Origin: Cetobacterium sp. ZOR0034
Lineage (GTDB): Bacteria; Fusobacteriota; Fusobacteriia; Fusobacteriales; Fusobacteriaceae
Reading direction: 5' to 3'
Assembly (NCBI RefSeq): GCF_000799075.1
Contig: NZ_JTLI01000104.1
Span: forward strand, 1 to 39,914
DNA length: 39,914 nucleotides
Program-made: the position numbers and the translations under genes
In this document: positions 31,994-37,873 of the stretch, piece by piece
Position numbering within the stretch: the first letter of the stretch is position 1
Layout: each line of letters opens with the position of its first letter
The notes under the pieces: model-generated
The model's database searches: none
What the model saw: only the letters and a program-made list of their open reading frames with translations
What the model was told of the DNA's origin: nothing

Positions 31994-32023
31994 ATTATAC
32001 CATATAATTATATTACTATTCAA
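31994..32023 (-). promoter_or_regulatory. Promoter of pcrA and the lipid A genes
   Basis: On the minus strand TATAAT (31994-31999) is preceded at 18 bases by TTGAAT (32018-32023). The predicted start near 31988 lies at the edge of the AAAGGAG ribosome-binding site, giving an extremely short leader of roughly ten bases. The -35 overlaps the pssA terminator tail. Confidence 0.5.
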
Positions 32024-32086: not shown

Positions 32087-32803
32087 CTATTCAAGTTCCT
32101 CTTTTGATCTCTCCGAGAAAAACTTCATTAAATTTACTAAAATATAGTAGCAAGTAACAATAAACATGCTATATTTTAGTGTAGCTAATATCAATACTAC
32201 AAACGGTAACATCAGTTTTTTAGGAACAAATCCAAACACTTTATCAGGTGTTTTAAATGGAATTGTACTAACCATTAATATCGCAGCTAATAAAGTTAAC
32301 CCTACAAATGCTTCTACTGAGAATAAATTCATTCCAAAGCTCTCTTTCATTGCCTCAACAAATAAAAGATATGAACAAACTACCGATGCTCCTGACGGAA
32401 TAGGCATTCCACTAAAGTCATCTTTTTCACTTGAAGCTGTTGTTACTATGTTAAACTTTACTAATCTCATAACTCCACATAACGCATATATAAACGATAT
32501 TGGAACTACAAACGATCTTATGCTATTTAATCCTAAAGCATTAAGACGTGAATAAACTAATATTGCCGGTGCTAATCCAAAAGTTATTGCATCACAGAAA
32601 GAGTCAAACTCTTTTCCGAATTCACTAAATGCATCTAATTTTCTTGCTGTTTTTCCATCTAATCCATCGCAAACCATACCTAATATTATAAACCAGATAG
32701 CTTTTGAATAATCCCCCGCTATGGAAGCTGTGATACTTAGATATCCTAAAAACATATTCGCTGCTGTAATTGCATTAGGTGCAATATACTTTCTTTCTAC
32801 CAT
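32087..32803 (-). CDS. pssA: CDP-diacylglycerol--serine O-phosphatidyltransferase
   Basis: PssA makes phosphatidylserine, the precursor of phosphatidylethanolamine, from CDP-diacylglycerol and serine at the membrane. The 238-residue protein is highly hydrophobic (about seven membrane segments) and has the complete CDP-alcohol phosphotransferase motif DG-x2-AR-x8-G-x3-D-x3-D in DGKTARKLDAF...GKEFDSFCD. It belongs to the Firmicutes-type PssA group. It stands alone between a divergent promoter and its own terminator, and would use the product of cdsA. Confidence 0.95.
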   Translation of the reverse strand: MVERKYIAPNAITAANMFLGYLSITASIAGDYSKAIWFIILGMVCDGLDGKTARKLDAFSEFGKEFDSFCDAITFGLAPAILVYSRLNALGLNSIRSFVVPISFIYALCGVMRLVKFNIVTTASSEKDDFSGMPIPSGASVVCSYLLFVEAMKESFGMNLFSVEAFVGLTLLAAILMVSTIPFKTPDKVFGFVPKKLMLPFVVLILATLKYSMFIVTCYYILVNLMKFFSERSKEELE

Positions 32804-32835
32804 TTTTAATCATCTCCCTATTTTTACAAATCTAT

Positions 32836-32867
32836 TTGATTTTATCATAAATATGGGATAAAATCAA
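32836..32867. promoter_or_regulatory. Self-complementary divergent promoter pssA / YlmH-like gene
   Basis: An 11-bp perfect inverted repeat (TTGATTTTATC at 32836-32846, GATAAAATCAA at 32857-32867) with a 10-base centre creates the same sigma-70 promoter on both strands: TTGATT, 17 bases, TAAAAT. On plus the -35 is 32836-32841 and the -10 is 32859-32864; on minus the -35 is 32862-32867 and the -10 is 32839-32844. Predicted starts are near 32871 (+) and 32832 (-). Each -10 overlaps the other strand's -35, so polymerase should occupy only one direction at a time. Confidence 0.7.
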
Positions 32868-32910
32868 CTTATCTATGTTTTTCAAAATATTTAAGTGAAA
32901 GAGAGAATTT

Positions 32911-33687
32911 ATGAATAAAAACTATTTTTTCAACCTTTTCAATGGCGAGGACGAGTTTGTAATAGCCTCTGTTTTTGAGGATATATCTCTATGTCTAGAC
33001 ATCGATTATCCAGTTTATGGAAGAACCTTTCTTCCACCTCAAATTGCTAGCAAACTTTGTGAATTTTGTAGCTCTATTGGTCTTCAAATTAAAAGTTTTG
33101 GTTTAACCGAAAACAGCGAAAAAAAATTAATTGTATTTGCTCCTAAAGAGTTTGATGTCAGCACATTAGAACCACCGATTACTTATTTTAAAATTGATGC
33201 AAATAACAAATTTAAAAACTTACAACATAAAGATTTTTTAGGCTCTATTATGAGCCTTGGTCTAAGAAGAGAAACTTTAGGAGATATCTTAGTTAAAGAT
33301 AATATAGGTTATTGCGTCGCTCTAACAGATATTTATAACATCATAGTTAGCTCTTTAGAAGGAATTAATACAATCCCTATAAAAATCAAGGAATTTTCAA
33401 TCTCTGAAATTCCAGAACCTGAATTTAAAGAGTTTACAGATACCATTCCATCTTTTAGATTGGATTCTATAATTGCATGCATCGGCAACTTTTCAAGAAA
33501 CATCAGTGTAAATCTCATCGAAAGTGGAGATGTTCTTGTCAACTACTCTGTCGAAAAGAGTAAAAGTAAAAATATTGAAATCGGTTCTGTTATAACTATC
33601 AGAAAAAAAGGAAAGTTTATCTTAGAGCAAAATCTAGGGGAAAACAAAAAAGGAAAATTTAAAATTCTAATCAAACAATATATTTAG
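32911..33687 (+). CDS. YlmH-like S4-domain RNA-binding protein
   Basis: The 258-residue protein matches the YlmH family: an N-terminal domain of about 75 residues, a central segment with the family signature FLGSIMSLGLRRETLGDILV (109-128), and a C-terminal S4 RNA-binding domain (about 181-238, FRLDSIIACIGNFSR...LIESGDVLVNY). YlmH of Bacillus binds the large ribosomal subunit carrying peptidyl-tRNA and has been linked to rescue of stalled translation; the role here is inferred from the family. The gene is not in the usual cell-division neighbourhood but heads a two-gene plus-strand operon with a MoCF-domain gene 8 bases downstream. Confidence 0.85.
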   Translation: MNKNYFFNLFNGEDEFVIASVFEDISLCLDIDYPVYGRTFLPPQIASKLCEFCSSIGLQIKSFGLTENSEKKLIVFAPKEFDVSTLEPPITYFKIDANNKFKNLQHKDFLGSIMSLGLRRETLGDILVKDNIGYCVALTDIYNIIVSSLEGINTIPIKIKEFSISEIPEPEFKEFTDTIPSFRLDSIIACIGNFSRNISVNLIESGDVLVNYSVEKSKSKNIEIGSVITIRKKGKFILEQNLGENKKGKFKILIKQYI

Positions 33688-33695
33688 GAGGAGAA

Positions 33696-34709
33696 ATGAA
33701 AACTGTTAAAACTATAGATGCAGTCGGTATGATACTATGCCATGATATAACAAAAATTGTTCCTGGAGAGTTTAAAGGTGTTGCTTTTAAAAAAGGACAT
33801 ATCATCACTGAAGAGGATGTACCTGAACTTTTAAAATTAGGGAAAGATAATCTTTTCGTTTGGGAACATATAGAAGGAACACTTCACGAAAATGATGCCG
33901 CTATAAGAATTAAAGAGCACACTGCTGGATGTGGTTTAGATTTCTCTACTATAAAAGAGGGAAAGATAGATTTTTTAGCTGCTGAAAATGGACTTTTAAA
34001 AGTTGATGTTGATGAACTTCTAAAAATTAATTCTCTTAGAGAGATTGTAATTGCAACTCTACATAATAATACTCCTGTAAAAAAGGGAACTAAAGTTGCT
34101 GGAACAAGAGTTATTCCTCTGGTTATCAACGAAGAAAAGATTTTAGAAATGGAAAAAATCTCAAAAAAAGAGATTATAAAGGTTTTACCTATAAAACCAA
34201 AAAAGGTTGCTATAATTACAACTGGTAACGAAGTTTTTTATGGAAGAATTCAAGATAAATTTGGACCAATTTTAACAAAAAAAGTTAACGAATATGGATG
34301 CGAAGTTGTCTATCATACATTCTCATCTGATGATAAAGAGATGATAAAAGAGAAAATTGCTGAGGCTTTAAAATCTGAAGCAGAGGTCATTCTTTGTACT
34401 GGTGGAATGTCTGTTGATCCAGACGATAGAACACCTCTTGCTATAAGAGAGATGGGTGGTGAATTAATAACTTATGGTTCACCAGTTCTTCCAGGAGCTA
34501 TGCTTCTTCTAGCTTACCACGGTGAAAAAGCAATTCTTGGACTTCCAGGTTGTGTTATGCACTCTAAAAGAACGGCATTTGATTTAGTTCTTCCTAGAAT
34601 TTTAACAGATGAAAAACTTACTTTTGAAGATATCGCAAAATATGGACATGGTGGTCTTTGCTTAGACTGTCCGATATGTACATACCCTCATTGTTCATTT
34701 GGAAAATAA
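33696..34709 (+). CDS. Molybdopterin-binding (MoCF-domain) protein with Cys-rich C-terminus
   Basis: The 337-residue protein contains a MoaB/MogA/MoeA-type molybdopterin-binding domain (about 168-305): KKVAIITTGNEVFYGR and the substrate motif ILCTGGMSVDPDDRTPLAI. The N-terminal 165 residues resemble an abbreviated MoeA-like part. The last 20 residues form a cysteine cluster, C322-x2-C325-x2-C328-x4-C333 in LCLDCPICTYPHCSFGK, which could bind zinc or an iron-sulfur cluster. AGGAGG precedes the ATG. No other molybdenum cofactor genes are in the window, so whether it acts on molybdopterin or another nucleotide-like ligand is open. Confidence 0.85.
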   Translation: MKTVKTIDAVGMILCHDITKIVPGEFKGVAFKKGHIITEEDVPELLKLGKDNLFVWEHIEGTLHENDAAIRIKEHTAGCGLDFSTIKEGKIDFLAAENGLLKVDVDELLKINSLREIVIATLHNNTPVKKGTKVAGTRVIPLVINEEKILEMEKISKKEIIKVLPIKPKKVAIITTGNEVFYGRIQDKFGPILTKKVNEYGCEVVYHTFSSDDKEMIKEKIAEALKSEAEVILCTGGMSVDPDDRTPLAIREMGGELITYGSPVLPGAMLLLAYHGEKAILGLPGCVMHSKRTAFDLVLPRILTDEKLTFEDIAKYGHGGLCLDCPICTYPHCSFGK

Positions 34710-34720
34710 CTTTTTTACAT

Positions 34721-34780
34721 TTCAAAAATAAAAAGAGCTTTAGAAGTTGACTAGACTCTAAAGCTCTTTTTATTTTTGAA
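34721..34780. terminator. Bidirectional terminator between convergent genes
   Basis: A 24-bp perfect inverted repeat (34721-34744 with 34757-34780) encloses a 12-nt loop. The stem core is AAGAGCTTTAGA / TCTAAAGCTCTT and both ends are A/T-rich, so U runs follow on either strand. It lies 11 bases past the MoCF gene stop and directly abuts the hsdR stop codon at 34781. Confidence 0.9.
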
Positions 34781-37700
34781 TTATACAATACTCTCTTCAC
34801 ACATTACCTTAGCTTGTTTTAATAATAGTTCTGTTGTATCCTCTGTGTCTGCTGGAGGATAACCAAACTTTCTAAGAAGTCTTCTGATAGATGTTCTCAT
34901 CTTAGCTTGTATGCTCTCTTTATCATACCAATCTATAGTCATATTTTTTCTAATAGTCTCTGTCAGCTCTTTTGTTATCTGTACCAGTATATCATCACCT
35001 AACATCTCTTTTACTTTTTCATCACGAGTTAAAGCATCATAGAAAGCTACCTCATCCTCAGTTAAACCAAGTGAGTCACCCTCTTTATGAGTTTCCATAA
35101 ACTCCTTAGCCATCTTTAGCAGTTCTTCCATTATCTCTAAACTTGTTAAAGCCTTATTTCTATATGAGCTCATAGCCTTTTGAAGTCTTTGTGAGAACTT
35201 TTCAGCTACCACCAGATTTCTTCTGCTAGAGTATTTAATCTTACCCTCTATTAGTTTTCTTAACATCTCAACAGCTAAATTTTTATATTTTATCTTCTCA
35301 ACCTCTTTTAAAAATTGATCTGAAAGAATAGATATATCCGCATTATCTAATCCTAATTCAGAATAAACATCTATAACCTCTTCAGATATAATTGTTTTAG
35401 ACATAAGTGCTGCTATTCTTTCATTTATCTGAGCCTGAGTTAGTTTCTTAGGATTATCTCCTTTATCCTCAGTTTCTAACTTAATAACACTAGCTTTAAC
35501 AGCTTTAAAATAGCTTATCTCATCATTTAAAGCCTGTCCATCACGAGTTGTTATACATAGAGAATGAGCCTTAGCTAGTGCTAAAACATTATCAATAAAT
35601 CTTTTTTTAATTCCAGGTTCATCATTTTCAAAACCTAAGATGTAATCCATACCCTCTATAATAACTCTAGCACGCTCTAAAGCACTACTACTTTTATATT
35701 TTGAATAATCAAAGTGATGGAATATCTCTTTTAGAATTTCATAGTGTTCAATCATAAGAGCTACCGCTTTTTCTGTATCTACTCCAGTGCACTTTTGATC
35801 ATTTGGTGTATATTGTCTTAATGCTTTTTTAAGTGCATCTCCTATTCCAATATAGTCTACAACTAAGCCACCAGTTTTATCTTTGTATACTCTATTTACC
35901 CTTGCAATAGCTTGCATTAAGTTATGCCCTACCATAGGCTTATCAATATACATAGTATGCATTGATGGAACGTCAAACCCTGTTAGCCACATATCACGAA
36001 CTATAACAATCTCTAACTCGTCACTGTCATCTTTCATTCTATTAGCAAGCTCTTCTCTCTCCTGCTTTGTAGTAAAGTGCTGCTTAAACTCCATAGGGTC
36101 TTTACTAATATCACTTGTCATAACAACTTTTATTTTTCCCTTAGTCTTATCTTCGCTGTGCCACTCTGGTCTTAAGCTTACAATCTCGTTATATAAATCC
36201 ATACATATTTTACGAGACATAGCTACTATCATACATTTACCAAAGGCATTATCTCTTCTCATCTCCCAGTGTTCTATAAAATCCTCTGCCAAAGTTCTTA
36301 TTCTATTTTGTGAACCAATAATAGCTTCCATTTTTGTAATATCTTTTTTAGTATGTTCAACAATTCCTTCGTCTTGACCTTCCATAATCTCTTCAAAATC
36401 ACCATCAAGTTCAGATAAAATAGGGTATGGAATGTCTAGCTTTACAAATCTATTTTCATAATATATTTTAACCGTAGCTCCATCTTCAACAGCTCTACTC
36501 ATATCGTAAGTATCTATGTAGTTACCAAATACAGCAGTTGTAGATTTATCATCAAAATCTATGGGCGTTCCTGTAAATCCAATATAATTTGCATTGGGAA
36601 GTGCATCACGAATATGTTTAGCGTACCCGTATTTACTATTTCCATCTGCATCCATTTTAGCATCTAAACCATACTGCGATCTATGAGCTTCATCAGCTAT
36701 AATATATATGTCATTTCTAGTACTAATAGCCTCTACAATCTCACCAGCTTTAGGAGCAAACTTCTGTATTGTAGAGAATATTATTCCACCACTACTTACA
36801 TTTAGTAATTCTTTTAATCTATCTTTATCGTCTGCTTGTTTTGGTGTCTCTATTAGATAACTTTGAGCTTTTGAGAAAGTTCCGAAAAGTTGATTATCCA
36901 AATCATTTCTATCAGTTAAAACTATAACTGTTGGATTATTAAACTTTTTCATAAGTTGTCCCGTATAAAATGTCATAGTTAGAGATTTTCCACTACCTTG
37001 AGTATGCCAAACAACACCAATTTTTCCATCATTGCTACGAGCATCTGCTGTCTTTTCCAGTGCTTTTTTTATGGCAAAGAACTGGTGATACTGAGCTAAT
37101 ATCTTTATCTTTTCATTTTTACTTTGAAGAAACAAAATATAGTCATGAGTTAACTCTAATACTCTTTCCTTAGATAGCATTCCACGAGTTAAAACTTCCA
37201 TCATTAAAGAGTTTGTATCGGCTATTGTAACCCCATCTATACTTCTAAAGCTCATAAATCTCTCTTCATTTGATGATATCGTTCCAGCTTTTGCATTAAC
37301 TCCATCACTTATAATGATAAAAGAGTTATATTTAAAAAGATTCCCAATCTCATATTTATATCTTTCAATTTGAGTATATGCTTCTTTTATACCTACATTA
37401 TCATTACTTAGAGATTTTAACTCTATAACTACAAGAGGTAATCCATTGATAAATAGTATTATATCTGGTCTACGTCTAGATTTTCCCACTATTGTAAATT
37501 GATTTATTGCTTGAAACTCATTTTTTTTAATATTTTTAAAATCTATTAAATATATTTTTCCACCAGAACGTTTGTTCCCATCCTTGTCTTTATACTCTCC
37601 TACATCCACTCCATTGACTAGCATATTATGAAACTCTTCATTACTCTTAATCAAGTTAGGATGTGAAAGTAGTATTACTTTTCTAATAGCTTCCTCTTTA

Positions 37701-37873
37701 GTAGAGGTTGGCATATCTTTATTTATGTTATAAACTGCTGTTCTTAAATTATCTTCTAGTATTACTGAATGATAGTCATCTCTCTCTAATTTTCTACCAT
37801 CAATACATTCCCATCCCAAATCTTCTAATATTTCAAGATAGGCTACTTCTAATTCATCCTCTGTAAAATTCAT
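34781..37873 (-). CDS. hsdR: Type I restriction endonuclease subunit R
   Basis: HsdR is the motor and nuclease subunit of a type I restriction-modification complex. The 1030-residue protein has the PD-(D/E)xK nuclease (Asp137 in RPDIILF, then Glu151 and Lys153 in VVIELKS), a superfamily 2 translocase with Walker A TQGSGKS (291-297), VLTDRNDLDNQLF, DEAH (394-397) in IIADEAHRSQYG and FTGTPIDF, MWLTGFDVPSMHTMYIDKP, and a C-terminal helical HsdS/M-binding domain. No frameshift or truncation is seen. It is preceded by AGGGGG. It follows fic by 26 bases; hsdM must lie beyond the window. Confidence 0.96.
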   Translation of the reverse strand: MNFTEDELEVAYLEILEDLGWECIDGRKLERDDYHSVILEDNLRTAVYNINKDMPTSTKEEAIRKVILLSHPNLIKSNEEFHNMLVNGVDVGEYKDKDGNKRSGGKIYLIDFKNIKKNEFQAINQFTIVGKSRRRPDIILFINGLPLVVIELKSLSNDNVGIKEAYTQIERYKYEIGNLFKYNSFIIISDGVNAKAGTISSNEERFMSFRSIDGVTIADTNSLMMEVLTRGMLSKERVLELTHDYILFLQSKNEKIKILAQYHQFFAIKKALEKTADARSNDGKIGVVWHTQGSGKSLTMTFYTGQLMKKFNNPTVIVLTDRNDLDNQLFGTFSKAQSYLIETPKQADDKDRLKELLNVSSGGIIFSTIQKFAPKAGEIVEAISTRNDIYIIADEAHRSQYGLDAKMDADGNSKYGYAKHIRDALPNANYIGFTGTPIDFDDKSTTAVFGNYIDTYDMSRAVEDGATVKIYYENRFVKLDIPYPILSELDGDFEEIMEGQDEGIVEHTKKDITKMEAIIGSQNRIRTLAEDFIEHWEMRRDNAFGKCMIVAMSRKICMDLYNEIVSLRPEWHSEDKTKGKIKVVMTSDISKDPMEFKQHFTTKQEREELANRMKDDSDELEIVIVRDMWLTGFDVPSMHTMYIDKPMVGHNLMQAIARVNRVYKDKTGGLVVDYIGIGDALKKALRQYTPNDQKCTGVDTEKAVALMIEHYEILKEIFHHFDYSKYKSSSALERARVIIEGMDYILGFENDEPGIKKRFIDNVLALAKAHSLCITTRDGQALNDEISYFKAVKASVIKLETEDKGDNPKKLTQAQINERIAALMSKTIISEEVIDVYSELGLDNADISILSDQFLKEVEKIKYKNLAVEMLRKLIEGKIKYSSRRNLVVAEKFSQRLQKAMSSYRNKALTSLEIMEELLKMAKEFMETHKEGDSLGLTEDEVAFYDALTRDEKVKEMLGDDILVQITKELTETIRKNMTIDWYDKESIQAKMRTSIRRLLRKFGYPPADTEDTTELLLKQAKVMCEESIV

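What the first reader, a model, noticed from the sequence alone, without database searches (positions are those of the whole stretch)
32836..32867. Perfectly symmetric, fully overlapping divergent promoter
An 11-bp inverted repeat produces identical TTGATT-17-TAAAAT promoters on the two strands, with each -10 sitting on the opposite -35. Polymerase binding must be mutually exclusive, coupling phosphatidylserine synthase expression inversely to the YlmH/MoCF operon. The same repeat could also be an operator. Symmetric divergent promoters are known as a class, but one this exact, between a phospholipid gene and a translation-related gene, is worth testing.
Basis: seen in the sequence. Interest (0 to 1): 0.6.

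Follow-up and report, generated by a model that had tools for sequence, protein, structure and literature searches.

The report
Ancient mirror-image promoter between two genes
Two neighbouring bacterial genes that point away from each other appear to share one mirror-image start signal, kept for a long time in this bacterial family; it is a tidy case of a known kind of gene arrangement, and nothing yet shows that it works as an on/off switch between the two genes.

Summary
In detail: 32836-32867 is an 11-bp perfect inverted repeat (10-bp centre) that writes TTGATT-17-TAAAAT on both strands. Each -35 overlaps the opposite -10 by 3 bp. The promoters are not identical: only pssA has the TG of an extended -10.

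It is more than chance. Perfect 9-bp arms (TTGATTTTA-N14-TAAAATCAA, exactly the union of the overlapping hexamers) lie upstream of pssA in 24 of 58 genomes, in six genera including Cetobacterium (the window's genus) and Psychrilyobacter. Centre, flanks and the N of TGN vary. A pssA tree fits one old gain and about five losses. The site is unique in its genome, unlike a regulon operator.

Best reading: an old, overlapping, divergent housekeeping promoter driving pssA (probably with pcrA-lpxC) one way and ylmH-moeA-like the other. Inverse coupling is not supported: published E. coli bidirectional promoters show no competition at basal activity. Against a general class: elsewhere in bacteria the motif is not enriched between divergent genes once homologues are collapsed (18 of 29 versus 14 of 26 controls), and 15 genomes have divergent ylmH without the symmetry.

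The parts
32836..32867 (.). Symmetric divergent promoter: 11-bp perfect inverted repeat; conserved core is the 9-bp arms 32836-32844 and 32859-32867
32836..32841 (+). -35 TTGATT of the ylmH-direction promoter
32859..32864 (+). -10 TAAAAT of the ylmH-direction promoter; no TG before it; predicted start near 32871, 5'UTR about 39-40 nt
   Evidence: start position inferred
32862..32867 (-). -35 TTGATT of the pssA-direction promoter
32839..32844 (-). -10 TAAAAT of the pssA-direction promoter, preceded by TGA (extended -10, 32845-32847); predicted start near 32832, 5'UTR about 29 nt
   Evidence: start position inferred
32087..32803 (-). pssA, CDP-diacylglycerol--serine O-phosphatidyltransferase; Shine-Dalgarno-like GGGAGATG upstream
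   Evidence: TIGR00473 120.5 bits, cut-off 107; PF01066
29789..32044 (-). UvrD/PcrA-type helicase, next gene after pssA; may also have its own promoter (TTGAAT-18-TATAAT with TG, 32023-31994)
   Evidence: PF00580, PF13361
28928..29770 (-). lpxC, same strand downstream
   Evidence: TIGR00325 264.3 bits, cut-off 187.25
32911..33687 (+). ylmH-like RNA-binding protein gene
   Evidence: PF17774 YlmH_RBD
33696..34709 (+). MoeA-like molybdopterin-binding-domain protein, 8 bp after ylmH, probably co-transcribed
   Evidence: PF00994

Best explanation
The 32-bp site is a housekeeping-sigma divergent promoter in which the -35 of each direction overlaps by three bases the -10 of the other, so that the 9-bp word TTGATTTTA (and its complement) encodes one -35 and the opposite -10. 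One polymerase can occupy it at a time, facing either pssA (with the helicase gene and lpxC behind it) or ylmH-moeA-like. The pssA direction carries an extended -10 (TG) and is probably the stronger. The architecture is old in Fusobacteriaceae and has been kept because both hexamer pairs are used, not because it is an operator. Shown: sequence, geometry, conservation, uniqueness. Inferred: use of both starts, relative strength, steric exclusion. Not shown: any regulatory coupling.
For: Both hexamer pairs at the optimal 17-bp spacing. Perfect 9-bp arms in a fixed 32-bp register upstream of pssA in 24 of 58 pssA genomes, 23 of the 24 with ylmH as the divergent neighbour. In those 23 the palindrome's reverse promoter is the best-scoring ylmH-direction site in the intergenic region (partly circular, because the palindrome fixes those letters). 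Over all 28 pssA genomes of the six genera, losses included, the six positions that serve only the ylmH promoter are conserved in 26.5 of 28 on average against 18.2 of 28 for 36 spacer and flank positions, while position 23, the N of TGN, takes all four bases: the symmetric unit ends at the hexamer borders. pssA tree: 6 changes of the label against a shuffled mean of 18.7, fitting one old gain and about five losses. In G001 pssA has become co-directional behind a tRNA-methyltransferase-family (MnmA-type) gene and the ylmH-side -35 is gone. Within the six genera palindrome and divergent ylmH go together: 23 of 24 with ylmH, 1 of 3 without, G025 not decidable at a contig end (Fisher p 0.025, not corrected for kinship).
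Against: No transcript data. The six genera were picked for holding the palindrome, so the conservation comparison is partly ascertained. 15 genomes have divergent ylmH within about 260 bp and no palindrome (11 of g13, G031, G030, G062, G019); G016 also has divergent ylmH, 829 bp away. G036 keeps the palindrome with a different divergent neighbour of unknown family. Where the ylmH-side -35 was lost (G001, G031, G012) the other arm TTGATTTTAT stayed intact, so its TTA may serve something besides the ylmH -10. In g12 the ylmH leader from this promoter would reach about 172 nt. The generic geometry TTGANNNTA-N14-TANNNTCAA is not enriched in 12 Cetobacterium genomes (20 sites, 11 of them pssA, against 15 for the reversed control).
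Confidence: 0.72

Rival explanations
1. The repeat is an operator for a dimeric repressor or activator that controls both genes; the promoter match is secondary.
For: Perfect dyad between divergent genes. In Clostridia the same core lies between a LysR-family regulator gene and a YeiH-like gene (27 of the 80 loci held fall in one homologous cluster that contains these pairs), where regulator binding is plausible. Weaker LysR-family matches exist in some palindrome-bearing genera outside Cetobacterium (g12, g14, g4, G036).
Against: Only one site in the genome: no other within 2 mismatches, 7 at 3 mismatches, 2 for the reversed control. Symmetry beyond the hexamers is not kept (position 23 free). 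Neither gene of the pair is a regulator. Homologues of the g13 LysR protein are absent (E <= 1e-20) from 12 of 12 Cetobacterium and 2 of 2 g10 genomes although the same search finds them in 12 of 12 g13 genomes.
Confidence: 0.1
2. Only the pssA promoter is real; TTA after its -35 and CAA after its -10 are kept for other reasons (spacer shape, discriminator), and ylmH is driven by another start.
For: pssA-side TG and hexamers are the best conserved part; the TTGATTTTAT arm survives when the other is lost; 15 genomes have divergent ylmH without symmetry.
Against: Outside the palindrome-bearing genera pssA promoters do without TTA and CAA, so pssA does not need them; no equally good ylmH-direction promoter elsewhere in the 23 intergenic regions.
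Confidence: 0.13
3. True either/or switch: mutual exclusion makes pssA and ylmH expression inversely related (an addition to the best explanation, not an alternative to it).
For: Footprints must overlap (geometry, established knowledge); competition does occur at E. coli bidirectional promoters once one direction is activated (PMC12825309).
Against: All five E. coli bidirectional promoters tested had basal activity too low for competition (PMC12825309); no activator site is known here; no expression data.
Confidence: 0.1
4. Chance palindrome inherited among close relatives.
For: An 11-bp inverted repeat appears in 0.8% of shuffles of this intergenic region.
Against: The same 18 arm bases in six genera while spacer and flanks diverged; pattern with at most one mismatch in 40 of 98 Fusobacteriota genomes against 1 of 98 for the reversed control (the 40 include other loci).
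Confidence: 0.03

Closest known systems
Bidirectional promoters of E. coli and Salmonella (Warman, Grainger and colleagues; PMC12825309, PMC10268837)
   Same: Symmetric promoter DNA drives divergent RNAs; opposing polymerases cannot bind together.
   Different: There TSSs lie 7-25 bp apart (peaks 18, 10, 23) around or in a shared -10; here the predicted starts are 39 bp apart and the shared bases are -35 with opposite -10.
Overlapping divergent promoters as a gene-organisation class (recalled from general knowledge, no paper read)
   Same: Two back-to-back promoters overlap in a divergent intergenic region.
   Different: Here the overlap is reciprocal and exactly symmetric over 9 bp, with no regulator gene in the pair.
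LysR-family/YeiH-like divergent promoter regions of Oscillospiraceae
   Same: Identical core TTGATTTTA-N14-TAAAATCAA between divergent genes.
   Different: Often an extended -10 on both strands, an extra TGATAA-N7-TTATCA dyad in many, and a regulator gene on one side; unrelated genes.

Membership tests
Bidirectional promoter (Warman/Grainger definition) | Divergent TSSs 7-25 bp apart around a shared -10 | tested here: not met
   Predicted TSS distance 39 bp and the two -10s do not overlap each other; definition read. The TSSs themselves are not mapped.
Overlapping divergent sigma-70-type promoters | Complete -35/-10 pairs on both strands with overlapping extents | tested here: met
Overlapping divergent sigma-70-type promoters | Divergent genes on both sides | tested here: met
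   pssA (-) and ylmH (+)
Overlapping divergent sigma-70-type promoters | Transcription starts from both strands | not testable with these tools
   no transcript data for this organism
Dimeric repressor/activator operator (regulon) | Several sites in the genome | tested here: not met
   one site; nearest others at 3 mismatches. A single-target regulator would escape this test.
Dimeric repressor/activator operator | Dyad symmetry conserved independently of promoter borders | tested here: not met
   symmetry kept over the 9-bp arms only; position 23 free
LysR (YeiE-like) regulated divergent promoter | Cognate LysR regulator in the genome | tested here: not met
   0 of 12 Cetobacterium genomes at E<=1e-20, 12 of 12 g13 genomes as positive control

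The most novel reading that the evidence does not exclude
A single 32-bp symmetric promoter, kept since an early ancestor in Fusobacteriaceae, acts as a regulator-free either/or device that balances envelope lipid synthesis (pssA-helicase-lpxC) against the YlmH/MoeA-like operon through polymerase occupancy alone.
Probability: 0.1. Interest if true: 0.65.

Novelty: new member of a known kind. Interest (0 to 1): 0.36.

Why it matters
It is a clean natural case in which selection seems to hold two complete promoters in 32 shared bases over genus-level divergence, with relatives that have lost one arm, moved ylmH away, or separated the two promoters. That makes it a good test bed for whether overlapping divergent promoters are kept for regulation, for noise control, or only because they fit a short intergenic space.

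Tried and rejected
Regulon operator: rejected, site unique. Genome-wide class of symmetric promoters in Cetobacterium: generic pattern not enriched, 20 sites against 15 control in 12 genomes. Cross-bacterial class: the scan gave 93 matched stretches, of which 80 were held; 51 of the 64 that could be placed between genes lie between divergent genes against 18 of 35 for an asymmetric control, but after collapsing homologous loci it is 18 of 29 against 14 of 26 (Fisher 0.37), and for non-Fusobacteria against the matched genomes alone 17 of 28 against 9 of 13 (loci at contig edges or inside ORFs left out, 16 of 80 symmetric and 19 of 54 control): rejected as evidence. The matched control used the genomes of 50 of the 70 non-Fusobacteria loci. 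Sites at or below one mismatch outside pssA (opened) include a LysR-family/acyl-CoA dehydrogenase pair in g13 (7 genomes), the ftsZ-rpsF gap in g20 and g26 (codirectional, 4 genomes) and scattered others, so the motif is not specific to pssA. LysR cross-regulation: rejected for Cetobacterium. RNA hairpin in a leader: rejected, the repeat lies upstream of both predicted starts. Paper searches for this gene pair, for overlapping symmetric divergent promoters and for palindromic promoters in Fusobacterium found no such case (zero papers each; listings, related work only). The F. nucleatum TSS paper PMC11005410 was read in passages only: it reports a promoter motif with a strong -10 and weaker -35; I found no pssA data in those passages. 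PMC10268837 and PMC12880088 were read in passages only. The 2021 bidirectional-promoter paper is not held; its content is taken from the later papers.

Full report
Observation. The window belongs to a Cetobacterium-group genome (G000, 2.74 Mb in 121 contigs; the genus name comes from relatives in the same genus code whose contigs, matched by length, are titled Cetobacterium). At 32836-32867 lies TTGATTTTATC-N10-GATAAAATCAA. The scanner reads TTGATT-17-TAAAAT on both strands. The + strand elements point at a ylmH-like gene (32911-33687), followed after 8 bp by a MoeA-like gene; the - strand elements point at pssA (32087-32803), followed by a UvrD/PcrA-type helicase gene and lpxC on the same strand. 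The -35 of one side and the -10 of the other share three bases. The - strand side has TGA before TAAAAT (extended -10); the + side has not, so the two promoters are not identical.

Chance. A perfect inverted repeat of 11 or more occurs in 162 of 20000 shuffles of the intergenic region, and promoter-like matches are common in this AT-rich DNA, so the sequence alone is weak evidence. Comparison decides. A search with at most one mismatch hit 40 of 98 Fusobacteriota genomes, reversed control 1 of 98. pssA was found in 58 of those 98. Upstream of pssA, 24 of the 58 carry perfect 9-bp arms TTGATTTTA-N14-TAAAATCAA in the same register: g1 11 of 12, g10 1 of 2, g14 3 of 3, g4 1 of 1, g12 7 of 7, g2 1 of 3; none of the other 30. 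The distance from the palindrome to the pssA start is 32-55 bp in these genomes, while the predicted ylmH leader varies from about 29 to 172 nt.

What is conserved. All 28 pssA upstream regions of those six genera, losses included, were anchored on the pssA promoter and read in the pssA direction. The letters shared by all or nearly all are the two hexamer pairs and the TG on the pssA side. TTA after the pssA -35 (28, 28 and 27 of 28) and CAA after its -10 (24, 26, 26 of 28) are needed only by the ylmH direction; together they average 26.5 of 28 against 18.2 of 28 for 36 spacer and flank positions. Position 23, the N of TGN, takes all four bases, so the symmetry stops at the hexamer borders. 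Two spacer positions (10 and 19, 27 of 28 each) are also conserved without an explanation. The genera were chosen because they hold the palindrome, which biases this comparison upward.

History. A pssA protein tree of the 58 genomes needs 6 changes of the palindrome label (shuffled mean 18.7). The palindrome-bearing genera form a grade below a 27-genome clade without it, which fits one old gain and about five losses, though the count cannot tell gain from loss. The losses are informative but mixed. In G001 pssA now follows an MnmA-type gene on the same strand and the ylmH-side -35 is gone. In G012 the neighbour is a TetR-type gene and that -35 is gone. In G031 ylmH is still divergent and that -35 is gone. 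In G025, cut by a contig end, both arms differ. In G036 the neighbour is an unknown divergent gene and the palindrome stays. In g13 ylmH is divergent but the intergenic region is longer, and in 7 of 11 genomes the best ylmH-direction promoter-like site is a separate one 30-40 bp from ylmH. So the symmetric arrangement looks like one of two solutions, a shared site or two separate sites.

Operator or promoter. In its own genome the palindrome has no second copy within two mismatches. In Clostridia the same core lies between divergent LysR-family and YeiH-like genes, where a regulator may well bind; YeiE control of the divergent yeiE-yeiH region is published for Salmonella (PMC12880088, passages read). 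The g13 LysR protein that stands beside a one-mismatch copy has no homologue at E <= 1e-20 in any of 12 Cetobacterium genomes, while the same search finds it in 12 of 12 g13 genomes, so that explanation does not transfer to the window. Across bacteria the motif is not enriched between divergent genes once homologous loci are collapsed, so I make no claim for a general class.

Mechanism. Most likely one polymerase at a time binds this site in either orientation under the housekeeping sigma factor; the pssA orientation is favoured by TG. Whether this matters for regulation is open. In E. coli, all five bidirectional promoters tested had too little basal activity for competition, and interference appeared only when one direction was activated (PMC12825309; abstract, introduction, one results section and discussion read). 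Those promoters have starts 10-23 bp apart around a shared -10; here the predicted distance is 39 bp, so by that definition this is an overlapping divergent promoter pair and not a bidirectional promoter in the strict sense.

Noticed in passing
window 34721-34780: 24-bp perfect arms (12-nt loop) exactly between the end of the MoeA-like gene (+) and the end of a long - strand ORF (34781-37873, HsdR-like by eye, not tested); folds at -32 kcal/mol, z -9.0: looks like a bidirectional terminator.
   Followed up: partly
L128, L133, L137, L145, L157, L158, L176, L184, L200: In Oscillospiraceae/Ruminococcus the same symmetric core, with TG on both strands, sits between divergent LysR-family and YeiH-like genes, often beside a TGATAA-N7-TTATCA dyad; a good candidate for a combined promoter and regulator site.
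   Followed up: partly
L059-L065: In seven g13 genomes a one-mismatch copy of the palindrome lies by divergent LysR-family and acyl-CoA dehydrogenase genes.
   Followed up: partly
L078, L080, L081, L082: In four genomes of another family (g26, g20) a one-mismatch copy lies in the gap between ftsZ-like and rpsF-like genes, which are codirectional; gene names by eye.
   Followed up: no
window 31994-32023: TTGAAT-18-TATAAT with TG just upstream of the helicase gene: it may have its own promoter inside the pssA operon.
   Followed up: no
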